From NCBI RefSeq assembly GCF_009495755.1, contig NZ_WIBJ01000033.1, positions 147,067 through 211,066 on the forward strand: a stretch of DNA of 64,000 nt, read 5' to 3'. The stretch is from Flavobacterium sp. LMO8. GTDB taxonomy: Bacteria > Bacteroidota > Bacteroidia > Flavobacteriales > Flavobacteriaceae. Positions 30,412-34,479 of the stretch are shown one piece after another (the stretch's first letter is position 1; the number at the start of each line of letters is the position of its first letter). The notes under the pieces were generated by a model. That model was not told the DNA's origin and made no database searches. It saw only the letters and a program-made list of their open reading frames with translations. The translations under genes were made by a program, and so were the position numbers.

Positions 30412-30458
30412 TGTTTTTTTTACAAAGATAATAGATTTTGTTGGGACAAGTATTTAAC

Positions 30459-30546
30459 GTTGCACTTGGTTTGGCACGCGGATGAAACGGGTCCGCCAAG
30501 GCGGAGCGCTGGTGATGCGGATTTTTAAACACATAGACACATAGAC
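30459..30546 (+). repeat. Direct repeat R1, first copy
   Basis: Begins GTTGCACTTGGTTTGGCACG, contains palindrome TCCGCCAAGGCGGA and AGCGCTGG, and ends in TTTTTAAACACATAGACACA. It matches 30846-30932 along its whole length with scattered substitutions. Confidence 0.85.
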
Positions 30547-30690
30547 GTTTTACTTAATTTAGAACAGGGATTTTTATTTAAACGCAAAGAGCGCTGAGTT
30601 TTTTTCGCAAAGGAGGCAAAGGCGTTGCACTTGGATGTGGATTGTGTTGAGAGAGCTACACATAGGCGCTGCACTTTTATAGTTTACAAT

Positions 30691-30730
30691 AGACTACACG
30701 ACTAGTTTGTCATGCTGATAAGCATCTCTT
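30691..30730 (+). repeat. Direct repeat R3, first copy
   Basis: Forty bases starting AGACTACACGACTAGTTTGT and ending AAGCATCTCTT, identical to 30984-31023. It includes the GTCATGCTGA word of the 5.6 kb hairpin family. Confidence 0.9.
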
Positions 30731-30845
30731 GAACAAGTGATACTTTCTTTATTAGAAGTTTATACCACATAGGCACATAGTTTTTTACACAGAGATGCAC
30801 GGAGTTTTATTGGAAGTGGATTGTGTTGAGAGAGCTACACAGAGG

Positions 30846-30932
30846 CGTTGCACTTGATTTGGCACGCGGATGATACAGGTCCGCCAAGGCGGAGCGCTGG
30901 TGGAGGCGGATTTTTTAAACACATAGGCACAG
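30846..30932 (+). repeat. Direct repeat R1, second copy
   Basis: Same order of blocks as 30459-30546, including TCCGCCAAGGCGGA and AGCGCTGG, followed by TTTTTTAAACACATAGGCAC. Confidence 0.85.
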
Positions 30933-30983
30933 TAGTTTTGGTTTGTGTTGATTTTAGGCGTTTCACTTGGCATAGCTCACATA

Positions 30984-31023
30984 AGACTACACGACTAGTT
31001 TGTCATGCTGATAAGCATCTCTT
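30984..31023 (+). repeat. Direct repeat R3, second copy
   Basis: Identical over 40 bases to 30691-30730, implying recent duplication or ongoing gene conversion. Confidence 0.9.
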
Positions 31024-31259: not shown

Positions 31260-31344
31260 GGAGAAATGGCAGAGTGGTCGAATGCGGCAGTCTTGAAAAC
31301 TGTTGACTGTAACAGGTCCGGGGGTTCGAATCCCTCTTTCTCCG
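31260..31344 (+). tRNA. tRNA-Ser (anticodon UGA)
   Basis: 85-base class II tRNA. The acceptor stem GGAGAAA (31260-31266) pairs with TTTCTCC (31337-31343), with discriminator G. The D-arm is GCAGAGTGGTCGAATGC, the anticodon loop CTTGAAA gives anticodon TGA (reads UCA), and there is a long variable arm and T-loop GGTTCGAATCC. CCA is not encoded. It has its own promoter and terminator and borders the accessory MazG-helicase pair. Confidence 0.96.
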
Positions 31345-31350
31345 CAGGGT

Positions 31351-31384
31351 AAAACCGATTCAGAAATGAATCGGTTTTTTTTTA
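31351..31384 (+). terminator. Terminator of tRNA-Ser
   Basis: AAAACCGATTC / GAATCGGTTTT hairpin followed by a run of T, seven bases after the tRNA 3' end. Confidence 0.93.
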
Positions 31385-31480
31385 TGTTTTTTTTAACGTT
31401 TACAGTTTTCTATATTTTTAACTCAATCAGGTTATTTACTTTAGCTACCAAATTTACCCCTGTATTTTTGTATGTTTTGT

Positions 31481-31531
31481 AAACCAGCTGTTTTTATGGG
31501 TTGCAAGGGGATTTTTTTTTCGTTATTTTTG
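31481..31531 (+). promoter_or_regulatory. Promoter and possible operator of the MazG-helicase unit
   Basis: TATTTTTG at 31524-31531 fits the -7 consensus and GTTG at 31500-31503 a degenerate -33 with a 20-base spacer. The ATG of the MazG-like gene comes 16 bases after the -7, so the leader is only a few bases. An imperfect palindrome AAACCAGCTGTTTT (31481-31494) lies just upstream of the -33 element and could be an operator; this is speculative. Confidence 0.45.
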
Positions 31532-31547
31532 AAGAAATGTTTTAAAA

Positions 31548-31886
31548 ATGGATAAGTATAGAAATGTTATTGATGAACTTATTAAGTTTAGAGATGATAG
31601 AGATTGGAAACAGTTTCATGATTCTAAAAATCTTGCGGTTGCTATTTCAATTGAAGCTTCTGAGCTAAATGAACTTTTCTTGTGGAAATCTCCTGAACAA
31701 TCTGATAAGGTTGAAATTGAGCGTATAAAAGAAGAATTGGCGGATATTTTGTCTTTTTCCTTTTTATTAGCAGAAAAACATGGATTGGATCCATTTGATA
31801 TTGTATCTGAAAAAATTAAGCGAAATGGAGAGAAATATCCAGTTGAAAAAGCTAAAGGTAAATCAGATAAATATGATCAATTATAA
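31548..31886 (+). CDS. MazG-like nucleotide pyrophosphohydrolase
   Basis: All-alpha NTP pyrophosphatase of the small MazG/iMazG type, which cuts (deoxy)nucleoside triphosphates to monophosphates and pyrophosphate. At 112 residues it is a single-domain protein. The metal-binding acidic residues are in IEASELNELFLW (E36, E39, E42) and KEELADIL (E63, D66), the ExxE...ExxD pattern of the family, followed by KIKRNGEKYPVEKAKG, the usual basic tail. Its TAA is followed at once by the ATG of the helicase gene, so the two are translationally coupled. The coupling suggests a joint role, perhaps nucleotide depletion or sanitation during DNA stress. Confidence 0.9.
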   Translation: MDKYRNVIDELIKFRDDRDWKQFHDSKNLAVAISIEASELNELFLWKSPEQSDKVEIERIKEELADILSFSFLLAEKHGLDPFDIVSEKIKRNGEKYPVEKAKGKSDKYDQL

Positions 31887-34064
31887 ATGAAGAATAGATT
31901 TTCGATTTCATGTTATAATTTTGATTCAAACTTAGAAAGAGAAATTATTGATAATCACCGGGACTACCTTTCATGGCCTTTGGTGTATTTTCTAAATGAT
32001 CAACAAACTAAATATGCTTATGTCGGTGAAACAACTGATGTTGTAAAACGCATGAAAGCGCATTCAAAAACACAAAACAAAAAAGATTTAACAGCTGTCA
32101 ACCTTATAACGAGTGATTTATTCAATAAATCAGCTACACTTGATGTAGAGGCTAATCTTATACGCTACATCAATGCTGATGGACAATATCATCTTAAAAA
32201 TGCAAACCTAGGAATTGCAAACCATCGTTTTTATCAACAAAAAGAAGTTTATTGGGAATTATTTTCGGATATCTGGGATGAATTAAGAGCAATGGGAATT
32301 GCTCGTCATTCATTAGAAAATATAGACAATTCTGATTTATTTAAATATTCACCCTACAAATCCCTTTCAACCGAACAAGTTACGAGTTTGAAATTAATTT
32401 TAGAATGTTTACTTGATGATAATACAAATGTCAGTTTAATTCAAGGAGGAGCAGGAACAGGTAAATCCATACTAGCAATATTTCTATTCAAGTTACTTAA
32501 AACAAATCTTGATGATTTTAACTTTGCTGATTTTGATGAAGAAGATTTGGAATTATTCAATCTTTTGAAAGCAGTTAGAGCCAAATATGGTGAGTTGGAA
32601 ATGGCTTTAGTTATTCCGATGGCTTCATTTAGAAAAACAATTTCAAAGGTTTTTAAAAATATTCAAGGTTTATCACCAAAAATGGTAGTAGGTCCATCAG
32701 ATTTGGCAAAAAACAACTATGATTTAGTAATTGTTGATGAAGGCCATCGTTTAAGAAGACGTGTAAATCTAGGGCCTTATTTTAAACCTTTTGATGACAC
32801 CTGTAAAGCTTTAGGGTTAGATGAATCAACTGCATCTGAATTAGATTGGCTGTTAATTCAATCAAAAAAATCACTTATTTTCTATGATCGTTTTCAGTCT
32901 ATAAAACCATCTGATGTTCTACGTTCTCGTTATGTTGCACTTGAAAATGCACCATCGACACGTATTGAAACTCTTAAAACTCAATTTAGATGTAGAGGAG
33001 GTAATGAATATGTTAAGTTAATTCATGACTTACTTGATAATAAGATTAATTCTACTAATAAGTTTCAATCCTTAGAATACGAATGTTATTTGTTTGAAGA
33101 TCTTCAACAAATGGTGGATGAGATTAATAAACGAGAAAAATTAGATGGCTTATCACGAATGGTTGCAGGTTATGCATGGGAATGGGTTTCTAATAAAGAT
33201 AAATCTGCTTTTGATATTGTAATTGAAGATACAAAATTACGTTGGAATAGTGTTGCTATAGATTGGGTTAATTCACCAAAATCGGTAGATGAAATTGGTT
33301 GTATTCATACCACTCAAGGATACGATTTAAATTACACAGGCGTAATTATTGGGCATGAACTTGATTATGATTTTGAGGCTAAGCAGATGGTGATTGATAA
33401 AAGTAAGTACAAAGATAAAGCTGGTAAAAATACAATTAAGGATGATCAGATTCTAAAAGAATATATTCTAAATATTTATAAAACAATTCTTTTACGTGGT
33501 GTAAAAGGTACTTTTATTTATGCTTGTAATGATAACCTAAGAAAATACTTAAGTCAATTCATTGCTTTAAAAACCACAACGGAAGAAAAACTTCAGTTAA
33601 AAATTATAGATGAACCGAATATAAATACAATTCCATTCTACGATTTAGAAATTGCTGCAGGTTCATTTTCTGAACTACAATTAGTTGAAGACATTCGATA
33701 TATAGAACTTGATGATGCAATACATAATCAGGAACATTACTTTGCCTGCAGAGTAGTTGGGGAATCTATGAATAAAATTATCCCTAATGGTTCTATATGT
33801 CTATTTGAAAAATACACTCATGGATCTCGTAATGGTTTAATTACACTAGTAGAAATGACTGATTTTATCGATGCTGATTTTGGTTCAAATTATACTGTTA
33901 AAGAGTATAGTAGTAAAAAAAATACTACTGAAGACAATTGGAGACATGAAGAAATAACGCTTTTGCCAAAATCAACATTAGATTATACATCCATTGTTCT
34001 TCGGGATGAGGAGACTATTAACCTGAAAGTGATTGGTGTTTTTGTTAGAGTGTTAGGTTTTTAA
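31887..34064 (+). CDS. GIY-YIG nuclease / DUF2075 helicase / S24 peptidase fusion
   Basis: 725-residue multidomain protein. Residues about 30-118 look like a GIY-YIG nuclease: LVYFL (33), YVGETTDVVKRMKAH (45-59) with Arg and His, and the Glu in LDVEANLI (85-92). Residues about 155-560 form a DUF2075 superfamily 1-type helicase or NTPase: Walker A GGAGTGKS (187-194), Walker B VIVDEGH (281-287), QFRCRGG (366-372) and IHTTQGYDLNYTGVIIG (473-489). Residues about 588-725 resemble a LexA/UmuD S24 peptidase: cleavage-type EIAAGSF (Ala591-Gly592), GESMNK with Ser627, and a candidate catalytic Lys672 in YTVKEY. There is no helix-turn-helix. It is the second gene after the MazG-like gene. Base composition is like that of its neighbours. 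A phage-defence or DNA-damage role is inferred. Confidence 0.88.
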   Translation: MKNRFSISCYNFDSNLEREIIDNHRDYLSWPLVYFLNDQQTKYAYVGETTDVVKRMKAHSKTQNKKDLTAVNLITSDLFNKSATLDVEANLIRYINADGQYHLKNANLGIANHRFYQQKEVYWELFSDIWDELRAMGIARHSLENIDNSDLFKYSPYKSLSTEQVTSLKLILECLLDDNTNVSLIQGGAGTGKSILAIFLFKLLKTNLDDFNFADFDEEDLELFNLLKAVRAKYGELEMALVIPMASFRKTISKVFKNIQGLSPKMVVGPSDLAKNNYDLVIVDEGHRLRRRVNLGPYFKPFDDTCKALGLDESTASELDWLLIQSKKSLIFYDRFQSIKPSDVLRSRYVALENAPSTRIETLKTQFRCRGGNEYVKLIHDLLDNKINSTNKFQSLEYECYLFEDLQQMVDEINKREKLDGLSRMVAGYAWEWVSNKDKSAFDIVIEDTKLRWNSVAIDWVNSPKSVDEIGCIHTTQGYDLNYTGVIIGHELDYDFEAKQMVIDKSKYKDKAGKNTIKDDQILKEYILNIYKTILLRGVKGTFIYACNDNLRKYLSQFIALKTTTEEKLQLKIIDEPNINTIPFYDLEIAAGSFSELQLVEDIRYIELDDAIHNQEHYFACRVVGESMNKIIPNGSICLFEKYTHGSRNGLITLVEMTDFIDADFGSNYTVKEYSSKKNTTEDNWRHEEITLLPKSTLDYTSIVLRDEETINLKVIGVFVRVLGF

Positions 34065-34479
34065 ATTAGTTTTCAAAGTAAGTTATTACTTTTTGATCGT
34101 AATGAGATTTTGAAATGGGTTCAGCATGACAAAGAAGTGGGAGTGTTGATTGATGATTAATGAATCTAGACTTCGCTCGATTTGACAAGTGCAGTTGAGT
34201 GACGAATGAAGATTAACGAATCATGAGTGGTGAAGCTAGCTTTACTTCGCAAAGCAAAAGTCTACTTTGTAGGAATTTTTTATCTATGAGAAAGAAAAAA
34301 GGAACTTAAAAAGTGTAATTTTAGTGAGTTGAATATTTAATTAAGACAAAAAAAAGTAATTTGAATTATACTCTAATTGGATTGACCTTAATATGAATTA
34401 TTATTTATTTAATTGCCTCAATATGTATTTAACAATTGAGGCAATTTTTATAGTAATTCGTAATATAAATTAGTAATTA
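34065..34479. other. Intergenic region after the helicase gene
   Basis: About 415 bases with no believable gene. It contains GGTTCAGCATGACAAAG (34118-34134, hairpin-family half-site), low-complexity GATTAATGAATC/GACGAATGAAG words, and the terminator at 34411-34449. No copy of the tRNA-Ser 3' end was seen here, so there is no visible attachment-site repeat. Confidence 0.6.
34411..34449. terminator. Bidirectional terminator between the helicase and pheT genes
   Basis: Perfect 12-base stem AATTGCCTCAAT / ATTGAGGCAATT followed by T-rich sequence, between convergent genes. Confidence 0.9.

What the first reader, a model, noticed from the sequence alone, without database searches (positions are those of the whole stretch)
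31548..34064. Candidate undescribed two-gene system: MazG pyrophosphohydrolase plus GIY-YIG/DUF2075-helicase/S24 fusion
A nucleotide-pyrophosphatase gene ends in TAA immediately followed by the ATG of a protein that combines a GIY-YIG-type nuclease, a Walker A/B helicase module and a LexA/UmuD-like peptidase. One chain thus has a DNA-cutting part, an ATP-driven part and an SOS-style sensor/protease part, next to an enzyme that destroys nucleotides. That is a plausible abortive-infection or damage-response design. It sits beside a tRNA gene and a repeat mosaic, typical accessory positions. The domain reading is from visible motifs; a defence function is inference, and I cannot tell whether the pair has already been reported.
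Basis: partly seen in the sequence, partly recalled or inferred. Interest (0 to 1): 0.87.

Follow-up and report, generated by a model that had tools for sequence, protein, structure and literature searches.

The report
Self-cleaving DNA-cutting enzyme with nucleotide cleaner
Two abutting bacterial genes make a nucleotide-cleaning enzyme and a DNA-cutting motor protein that carries a LexA-like self-cutting switch; the pair travels together between genomes and looks like an undescribed relative of restriction-type phage defences.

Summary
MazG (31548-31886) and the fusion (31887-34064) are intact, abutting genes, and Pfam supports MazG-like, GIY-YIG, SLFN-g3 helicase (formerly DUF2075) and Peptidase_S24. 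The pairing is not chance: 34 of 34 other Bacteroidota loci encoding the GIY-YIG-helicase protein have MazG directly upstream, although MazG and fusion divergence disagree (rho 0.22-0.31, against 0.80-0.92 within the fusion). The S24 part is a LexA catalytic domain by predicted structure, with an invariant Ser/Lys pair and a conserved Ala-Gly site. The same S24 type also sits on SauUSI-like type IV restriction enzymes, which have a NUDIX pyrophosphohydrolase directly upstream, on type I HsdR, and once on a PD-(D/E)XK-like helicase relative (shifted frame). MazG's named solved relatives are dCTP pyrophosphatases. The module sits just after a tRNA-Ser; one relative carries a cytosine-5 methyltransferase cassette there.

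Best reading: a restriction-type DNA-degrading module with a nucleotide-pool sanitizer, switched by LexA-like self-cleavage. Self-cleavage, its direction, the DNA target and phage protection are inferred. Abortive infection specifically is not supported. PADLOC-DB (2023) holds no matching system and my paper searches found none; their listings were capped, and a 2025 Schlafen preprint was not held.

The parts
31260..31345 (+). tRNA-Ser(TGA), anchor of the insertion site; flank shared with relatives ends between 31345 and 31396
31401..31547 (+). upstream region shared with the closest copy (L003), presumably holding the promoter; left edge of the unit is about 31397-31401
   Evidence: L003 homology 31401-34067; flank homology of relatives ends at 31345-31396
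31548..31886 (+). MazG-like all-alpha NTP pyrophosphohydrolase; closest solved relatives pyrophosphatase 4qgp and dCTP pyrophosphatase 1; E39, E42, E63, D66 invariant in 20 rows
31887..34064 (+). GIY-YIG / SLFN-g3 SF1 helicase / S24 fusion, 725 aa
31980..32201 (+). GIY-YIG nuclease module (about residues 32-105; Pfam covers 32-67)
32430..33527 (+). SLFN group 3 SF1 helicase (residues 182-547; Walker A K193, Walker B D284 E285)
33633..34061 (+). LexA-type S24 domain (residues 583-725)
33657..33662 (+). predicted scissile A591-G592 bond
   Evidence: A591 and G592 each in 30 of 31 aligned proteins; same spacing to Ser and Lys on PLD-type proteins, two residues more on HsdR
33765..33767 (+). predicted nucleophile Ser627
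   Evidence: 31 of 31
33900..33902 (+). predicted general base Lys672
   Evidence: 31 of 31

Best explanation
The pair is a mobile, restriction-type DNA-degrading module. The fusion protein is an ATP-driven SF1 translocase that delivers a GIY-YIG nuclease to foreign or abnormal DNA (domains shown, activity inferred). The coupled MazG is a dCTPase-type sanitizer that removes modified or aberrant dNTPs so that host DNA does not acquire the mark the nuclease attacks, or so that phage is denied modified nucleotides (inferred). The C-terminal domain is a LexA-type self-cleaving switch; RecA filaments on damaged DNA would trigger cleavage at A591-G592 (residues and predicted fold shown, cleavage inferred). 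My preferred direction is off-switching: the N-terminal product would end in -IAA, like LexA's -VAA, and could be handed to ClpXP, giving a built-in restriction alleviation when the host's own DNA is damaged (inferred from recalled LexA and HsdR biology).
For: Domains over the curated Pfam cut-offs. MazG directly upstream in 34 of 34 other loci despite discordant MazG and fusion divergence. Catalytic residues of nuclease, helicase and S24 invariant in 31 of 31; purifying selection on all parts. S24 model resembles LexA (Z 15.0 to 1jhe, 14.4 to LexA on a RecA filament; Foldseek E 1.5e-5). The same S24 type with the same motif order sits on SauUSI-type enzymes (PADLOC mREase_IV 815 bits over residues 1-948 of L077) and on HsdR in the same gene run as hsdM (L082), which ties it to restriction motors. 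A NUDIX gene lies directly upstream of the SauUSI-type gene in 9 of 9 loci examined, a parallel to MazG; the two modules stand in tandem on one Lactiplantibacillus plasmid. [quoted passage not shown] MrcB_N genes lie directly upstream of the helicase in Paenibacillus and of MazG in Priestia. The spot behind the tRNA-Ser holds a C-5 cytosine methyltransferase cassette in relative G012.
Against: No recognised modified-base reader domain in the window protein. No protection, nuclease or cleavage data exist. Outside Bacteroidota the linkage is partial: of 15 helicase-bearing records read, 4 have an annotated adjacent MazG, 2 more show one by tblastn alone, 9 have none adjacent. In Bacteroidota, SLFN-g3 helicases of other types mostly lack it (21 of 30 loci have none; also the two Hymenobacter plasmid stretches). 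The window copy's neighbours read as housekeeping genes. S24-less cores look like complete enzymes (L038, L095, L144), so cleavage could equally release an active enzyme.
Confidence: 0.45

Rival explanations
1. Damage- or phage-activated suicide system: the S24 domain holds the nuclease off; RecA filaments formed during infection trigger self-cleavage, releasing an active nuclease-helicase while MazG drains dCTP, killing or arresting the cell.
For: The cleavage product (591 aa) is about as long as S24-less natural relatives of 553-580 aa (L038, L095, L144), so it could be an active enzyme. LexA-type fold whose matches include RecA-bound structures. dNTP-degrading enzymes in defence are known (recalled).
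Against: S24-less relatives with MazG exist without any such lock (L038; L144). Firing on every DNA-damage event would be costly. The same S24 domain on type I HsdR and SauUSI-type enzymes suggests control of restriction, not suicide.
Confidence: 0.25
2. Nhi-like nuclease-helicase: the fusion attacks phage replication intermediates marked by phage proteins (Nhi biology recalled), with MazG and S24 as accessory regulators; no modified base is involved.
For: Nhi and AbiO profiles match the helicase part of PD-(D/E)XK-like relatives (36-54 bits). SF1 helicase of Dda/UvrD type. No modified-base reader found.
Against: The window protein itself matches neither Nhi nor AbiO at E<=1. Does not explain the parallel NUDIX/SauUSI arrangement.
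Confidence: 0.2
3. SOS-regulated repair or recombination nuclease, not defence.
For: LexA-type domain, SF1 helicase, housekeeping-like neighbours in the window. The host's two other S24 proteins are UmuD-sized, each with a UmuC-like frame beside it (read by eye), and none of LexA size was found.
Against: Patchy presence: the GIY-YIG layout in 14 of 199 relatives and 12 of 395 genomes of the phylum, the window's own included. Position in a variable spot behind a tRNA, different contexts of 95%-identical copies, copies with internal stops (L033, L040).
Confidence: 0.1

Closest known systems
SauUSI-type type IV methyl-directed restriction enzymes (PADLOC mREase_IV; PLD + SF2 helicase + DUF3427)
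   Same: Nuclease fused to an NTP-driven motor; Bacteroidota members carry the same C-terminal S24 domain, and the nine loci examined have an NTP pyrophosphohydrolase gene directly upstream
   Different: Nuclease is PLD instead of GIY-YIG, motor SF2 instead of SF1, DUF3427 absent here, partner NUDIX instead of MazG
Nhi / AbiO nuclease-helicases, and PADLOC candidate PDC-S41
   Same: Single-chain nuclease plus SF1 helicase (Nhi recalled); Nhi and AbiO profiles match the helicase part of 620-aa-type relatives with 36-54 bits, PDC-S41 matches them with 44-67 bits
   Different: Window protein does not match Nhi or AbiO at E<=1 and PDC-S41 only with 16.5 bits; GIY-YIG, S24 and MazG partner added
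LexA / UmuD / CI catalytic domains (Peptidase S24)
   Same: Predicted fold, Ala-Gly site, Ser and Lys in the same order
   Different: No DNA-binding repressor domain; fused to a nuclease-helicase
dCTP pyrophosphatase 1 (DCTPP1/RS21-C6) and pyrophosphatase 4qgp
   Same: Best solved relatives of the MazG protein; RDWxQFH, ELxELFxWK and EELxD blocks shared with dCTP pyrophosphatase 1
   Different: Substrate untested; gene coupled to a nuclease gene
Type I HsdR with C-terminal S24 (L082, L083)
   Same: Same S24 type on a restriction motor
   Different: Classical HsdR motor; hsdM in the same gene run (L082)
Bacterial Schlafens in anti-phage defence (2025 preprint, doi 10.1101/2025.07.24.666596)
   Same: The helicase here is named after a Schlafen group
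   Different: Cannot tell: the preprint was seen only as a reference; passages of the citing paper speak of Schlafen RNases, which Pfam does not show here

Membership tests
Peptidase S24 (LexA/UmuD type) | Pfam Peptidase_S24 over cut-off | tested here: met
   28.9 bits vs 23.3
Peptidase S24 (LexA/UmuD type) | Ser/Lys dyad and Ala(Cys)-Gly site | tested here: met
   S627 and K672 31 of 31; A591 30 of 31 (one Cys), G592 30 of 31 (one Ser)
Peptidase S24 (LexA/UmuD type) | LexA catalytic fold | tested here: met
   Z 15.0, rmsd 2.3, 121 aligned to 1jhe; domain alone, Foldseek E 1.5e-5, TM 0.58/0.71
Peptidase S24 (LexA/UmuD type) | RecA-stimulated self-cleavage | not testable with these tools
   needs biochemistry
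GIY-YIG nucleases | Pfam match and motif residues | tested here: met
   24.1 vs 22.6 bits; motif residues invariant; score is weak
SLFN group 3 / DUF2075 SF1 helicases | Pfam PF09848 over cut-off, Walker A/B | tested here: met
   199.8 vs 24 bits; K193, D284, E285 31 of 31
MazG-like pyrophosphohydrolases | Pfam match and acidic metal ligands | tested here: met
   65.2 vs 27 bits; E39, E42, E63, D66 invariant in 20 rows
dCTP pyrophosphatase | dCTP or modified-dCTP hydrolysis | not testable with these tools
   sequence relatedness only
SauUSI / mREase_IV type IV restriction | PLD nuclease + SF2 motor + DUF3427 | tested here: not met
   no PLD or DUF3427 match and no mREase_IV match at E<=1; only a weak ResIII match (25.8 bits) under the SLFN helicase
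SauUSI / mREase_IV type IV restriction | cuts only modified DNA | not testable with these tools
   needs biochemistry
Nhi | PADLOC Nhi profile match | tested here: not met
   no match at E<=1 for the window protein, though 620-aa-type relatives match in the helicase part
Known defence systems in PADLOC-DB 2023 | match to a system's proteins along their length | tested here: not met
   MazG none; fusion only partial matches, best PDC-S14 34.4 bits over residues 24-110

The most novel reading that the evidence does not exclude
A shared regulatory principle in bacterial restriction. Unrelated nuclease-motors (GIY-YIG/SF1, PD-(D/E)XK-like/SF1, PLD/SF2 SauUSI-type, HsdR) acquired one dedicated LexA-type self-cleaving domain, so that RecA filaments switch restriction off (or on) when DNA is damaged. 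Three of these four scaffolds also come with a dNTP pyrophosphohydrolase gene (MazG or NUDIX) that would keep modified nucleotides out of host DNA.
Probability: 0.35. Interest if true: 0.86.

Novelty: new variant of a known kind. Interest (0 to 1): 0.68.

Why it matters
If true, it joins three things usually studied apart: restriction-type nuclease motors, nucleotide-pool cleaning, and SOS-type proteolytic switching. It would offer a direct molecular mechanism for relieving self-restriction during DNA damage. It would also make testable why NTP pyrophosphohydrolase genes stand beside such nucleases. The S24 switch and the MazG/NUDIX partner give two easy, separable handles (S627A; MazG acidic residues).

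Tried and rejected
Chance adjacency of MazG: rejected (34 of 34). Limits of that count: gap sizes rest on start codons chosen by a script that looks from just before the MazG stop, so they lean short. As an internal comparison, among the 30 PF09848 loci fetched from 296 genomes (5 further matches there had no locus), MazG was found in 9: 4 of 4 GIY-YIG loci, 5 of 8 with open frames of 621-636 aa, 0 of 18 others. Some loci end near contig ends, so absences are approximate.

Defence-island position of the window copy: not seen. For homologues, 145 neighbour ORFs from 30 loci matched 104 PADLOC models at 1e-20 (25 shown; among them ThsA, Drt2, bSEFIR, PDC-S02, PDC-S05), against 7 models for 138 control ORFs from 20 stretches that I picked at round coordinates in twelve of the same genomes. 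The tool counts models, not proteins, so this is a trend and not a rate. I left out 10 of 155 neighbour ORFs (5 of a near-duplicate locus, 5 of the last locus) and 20 of 158 control ORFs (size limit). 5 neighbours were MazG-like, probably the module's own MazG not fully excluded.

NUDIX linkage 9 of 9: six loci came from the S24 and fusion searches; three were opened by me from 626 matching plasmid records, one of them because its listing already named the NUDIX gene. The other records were not opened, so this is no survey.

Spread on viruses: one viral-contig scan with the family alignment found only one weak partial relative. The phage collection gave 4 records, none covering 80% of the query.

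Solved relatives of the fusion by sequence: none at E<=1. A PD-(D/E)XK nuclease in the 620-aa relatives is read from motif by eye; Pfam showed no nuclease there (L088).

Literature: ten searches, seen as listings, some capped (20 of 46, 10 of 22, 20 of 155). Searches served other questions, and one search was spoilt because one term matched 'abiotic'. The five papers naming DUF2075 or COG3410 were not opened. The Nhi paper was not held, so Nhi is described from recall. Read as passages only: PMC12839542 (no occurrence of MazG, S24, LexA, GIY-YIG or DUF2075), PMC7159879, PMC3874153, PMC7162842.
Full report
Observation. Pfam supports MazG-like, GIY-YIG (weakest, 24.1 bits against a cut-off of 22.6), SLFN-g3_helicase (the current name of DUF2075) and Peptidase_S24; weaker overlapping matches to ResIII and dUTPase_2 also pass their cut-offs. 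A tRNA-Ser(TGA) lies 200 bases upstream, and dispersed repeats lie between it and the next gene.

Homologues. The fusion was sought in genome contigs (13 loci), in 199 relatives (16 genomes matched) and in 395 genomes of the phylum (25 matched). The last two counts include the window's own genome and matches through the S24 domain or a distant helicase alone; the GIY-YIG-helicase layout itself is in 14 of 199 and 12 of 395, the own genome included. The 13 loci, 13 and 8 further ones make 34 loci besides the window. In all 34 a MazG gene lies directly upstream, by my choice of start codons at -14 to +29 nt, 25 of 34 at 0 or -4 and 33 of 34 at 17 or less, which suggests translational coupling. 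One locus (L038) lacks S24, one (L040) is broken early, and one (L033) has an internal stop. Pairwise divergence of MazG follows that of the fusion poorly (Spearman 0.22-0.31), while the three parts of the fusion follow one another (0.80-0.92), over 465 pairs from 31 sequences (window plus 30 of the 34). MazG is short, which lowers the correlation. Even so, four same-genus copies (L022, L023, L033, L034) have MazG 69-72% and fusion 53-55% identical to the window, and three of another family (L017, L019, L020) show the reverse, 54-55% and 65-67%. Linkage thus seems to have survived partner exchange, which argues for joint function.

Residues and selection. In 31 aligned fusions (the window plus 30 of the 34; left out were L033 and L040 with internal stops, L038 without S24 and L013 as a near-duplicate) the GIY-YIG residues Y34, Y45, G47, R55, H59, E88, N105, the helicase residues K193, D284, E285, and S627 and K672 are invariant; A591 and G592 occur in 30 of 31 each. 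MazG keeps E39, E42, E63 and D66 in 20 of 20 rows. dN/dS against the two closest copies is 0.03-0.16 for each part.

Structure. The AlphaFold2 model (mean pLDDT 82) matches SF1 helicases (UvrD, Dda, FBH1, SLFN11/14) and, at its C-terminus, LexA (Z 15.0 to 1jhe) and LexA and lambda repressor bound to RecA filaments (Z 14.1-14.4). The S24 domain modelled alone (pLDDT 89) finds LexA first, then lambda repressor and UmuD (ranks 1-24, best E 1.5e-5, TM 0.58 by query). In the window genome two other S24 proteins were found, of 151-153 aa, each with a long frame beside it that reads as UmuC by eye; none of LexA size was found.

The same S24 domain elsewhere. A search with the S24 domain alone matched 18 of 395 genomes of the phylum at 1e-8, the own genome included. 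By the searches these are 10 on the GIY-YIG fusion, 5 on PLD-SF2 proteins, 2 on HsdR and 1 at a contig end with unknown scaffold. The PLD group are about 1125-1155-aa PLD-SF2-DUF3427 proteins; the one scanned matches PADLOC's type IV methyl-directed restriction enzyme with 815 bits over residues 1-948, ahead of S24 (L077). The two HsdR proteins have 1181 and 1182 aa; the one whose neighbours were scanned (L082) has an HsdM gene in the same run. Spacing from Ala to Ser to Lys is 36 and 45 residues in the window protein and two PLD proteins, and 38 and 45 in the two HsdR proteins. Across 25 aligned S24 domains the Ser and Lys are invariant. A Halomonas plasmid carries the domain, in a shifted frame, after a PD-(D/E)XK-like SLFN-g3 helicase, with a MazG-like match downstream.

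Pyrophosphohydrolase parallel. A NUDIX gene lies directly upstream of the PLD-SF2-DUF3427 gene in 9 of 9 loci examined: six with S24, of which two are nearly identical, and three without, chosen from 626 plasmid records. On a Lactiplantibacillus plasmid the NUDIX-PLD-SF2 pair is followed directly by a MazG-GIY-YIG-SLFN pair. MazG also precedes SLFN-g3 helicases of a 620-aa type in Bacteroidota, Priestia and Halalkalicoccus.

Limits of the MazG link. I read 15 helicase-bearing records from outside Bacteroidota (14 plasmid records of the 38 matched, and one unassigned phage record). Four have an annotated adjacent MazG (Halalkalicoccus, Priestia, Lactiplantibacillus upstream, Ligilactobacillus downstream). 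Two unannotated ones show it by tblastn: the phage record upstream and Halomonas downstream of the S24 piece. Nocardiopsis has one more than 3 kb away. Paenibacillus, Enterococcus, Fructilactobacillus, Methanosphaera, Lysinibacillus, L. amylolyticus, Limosilactobacillus and Latilactobacillus had none in the stretch read. Two Hymenobacter plasmid stretches (Bacteroidota) with DUF2075 genes had none either. In the 30 SLFN-g3 loci, 21 had none. The link is therefore strict for the GIY-YIG type in Bacteroidota and looser elsewhere. MrcB_N genes lie directly upstream of the Paenibacillus helicase and of MazG in Priestia.

Substrate of MazG. The best solved relatives are pyrophosphatase 4qgp and dCTP pyrophosphatase 1. 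[quoted passage not shown]

Site. DUF6642 was found in 9 of 10 relatives searched. In five of the nine the flank leading to tRNA-Ser is shared in whole or part, and homology stops at window 31345-31396, at or just after the tRNA; in the other four no tRNA lay in the stretch. In the closest copy, L003 (95% identical protein), homology spans only window 31401-34067 apart from repeats and the tRNA end. So the unit is about 2.67 kb, placed behind the tRNA. After the same tRNA, G012 carries a C-5 cytosine methyltransferase and an HATPase protein, and three others read carry different genes. The side towards pheT is arranged differently in relatives.

Mechanism. Shown: domain content, gene pairing, conservation, and predicted LexA fold with intact catalytic residues. 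Inferred: a nuclease-motor degrading foreign or modified DNA; MazG cleaning dNTPs so that host DNA is not marked; RecA-stimulated self-cleavage. Direction is open. Off-switching is preferred because the new C-terminus (-IAA) resembles the LexA fragment that ClpXP removes and because HsdR is known to be removed by ClpXP during restriction alleviation (both recalled, not checked here). On-switching remains possible because the product resembles S24-less enzymes. The window protein fails tested defining features of SauUSI and of Nhi, so it is not filed as either; it may still work like them.

Novelty. PADLOC-DB 2023 has no matching system, and ten searches of an open-licence paper library showed no report (listings, some capped). 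A 2025 preprint on bacterial Schlafens in defence, seen only as a reference, and subscription-only work could hold one. I rate it a new variant of nuclease-motor restriction-type systems.

Noticed in passing
L082:8025-11567 and L083:7039-10584: Type I HsdR proteins with a C-terminal LexA-type S24 domain; in L082 an HNH gene, an AAA_21 ATPase and hsdM precede it within about 5.2 kb.
   Followed up: partly
L077, L079, L080, L081 (also L076, L078): SauUSI-type PLD-SF2-DUF3427 proteins with an added C-terminal S24 domain and a NUDIX gene directly upstream.
   Followed up: partly
L144:5583-14799: Lactiplantibacillus plasmid cluster: NUDIX, SauUSI-like, MazG, GIY-YIG-SLFN helicase, then two unknown genes (one matching PADLOC PDC-M26A) and a gene annotated DUF2357.
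   Followed up: partly
window 30458-31023: Mosaic of dispersed repeats (94, 52 and 46 nt units) between DUF6642 and tRNA-Ser; copies occur at the same place in relatives and around the L003 copy.
   Followed up: partly
L229:1974-4711 (G012:C1, about 716,473-719,210): C-5 cytosine methyltransferase plus HATPase_c_3 protein behind the same tRNA-Ser in a close relative; three other relatives read carry different genes there.
   Followed up: partly
L029:889-2922 (G040): A divergent copy whose S24 domain has a Cys-Gly site (UmuD-like) instead of Ala-Gly, retaining Ser and Lys.
   Followed up: no
G000:C18:14189-14527 and G000:C27:154781-155125: Host has two UmuD-sized S24 proteins, each with a UmuC-like frame nearby (read by eye), and no LexA-size S24 protein was found.
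   Followed up: partly
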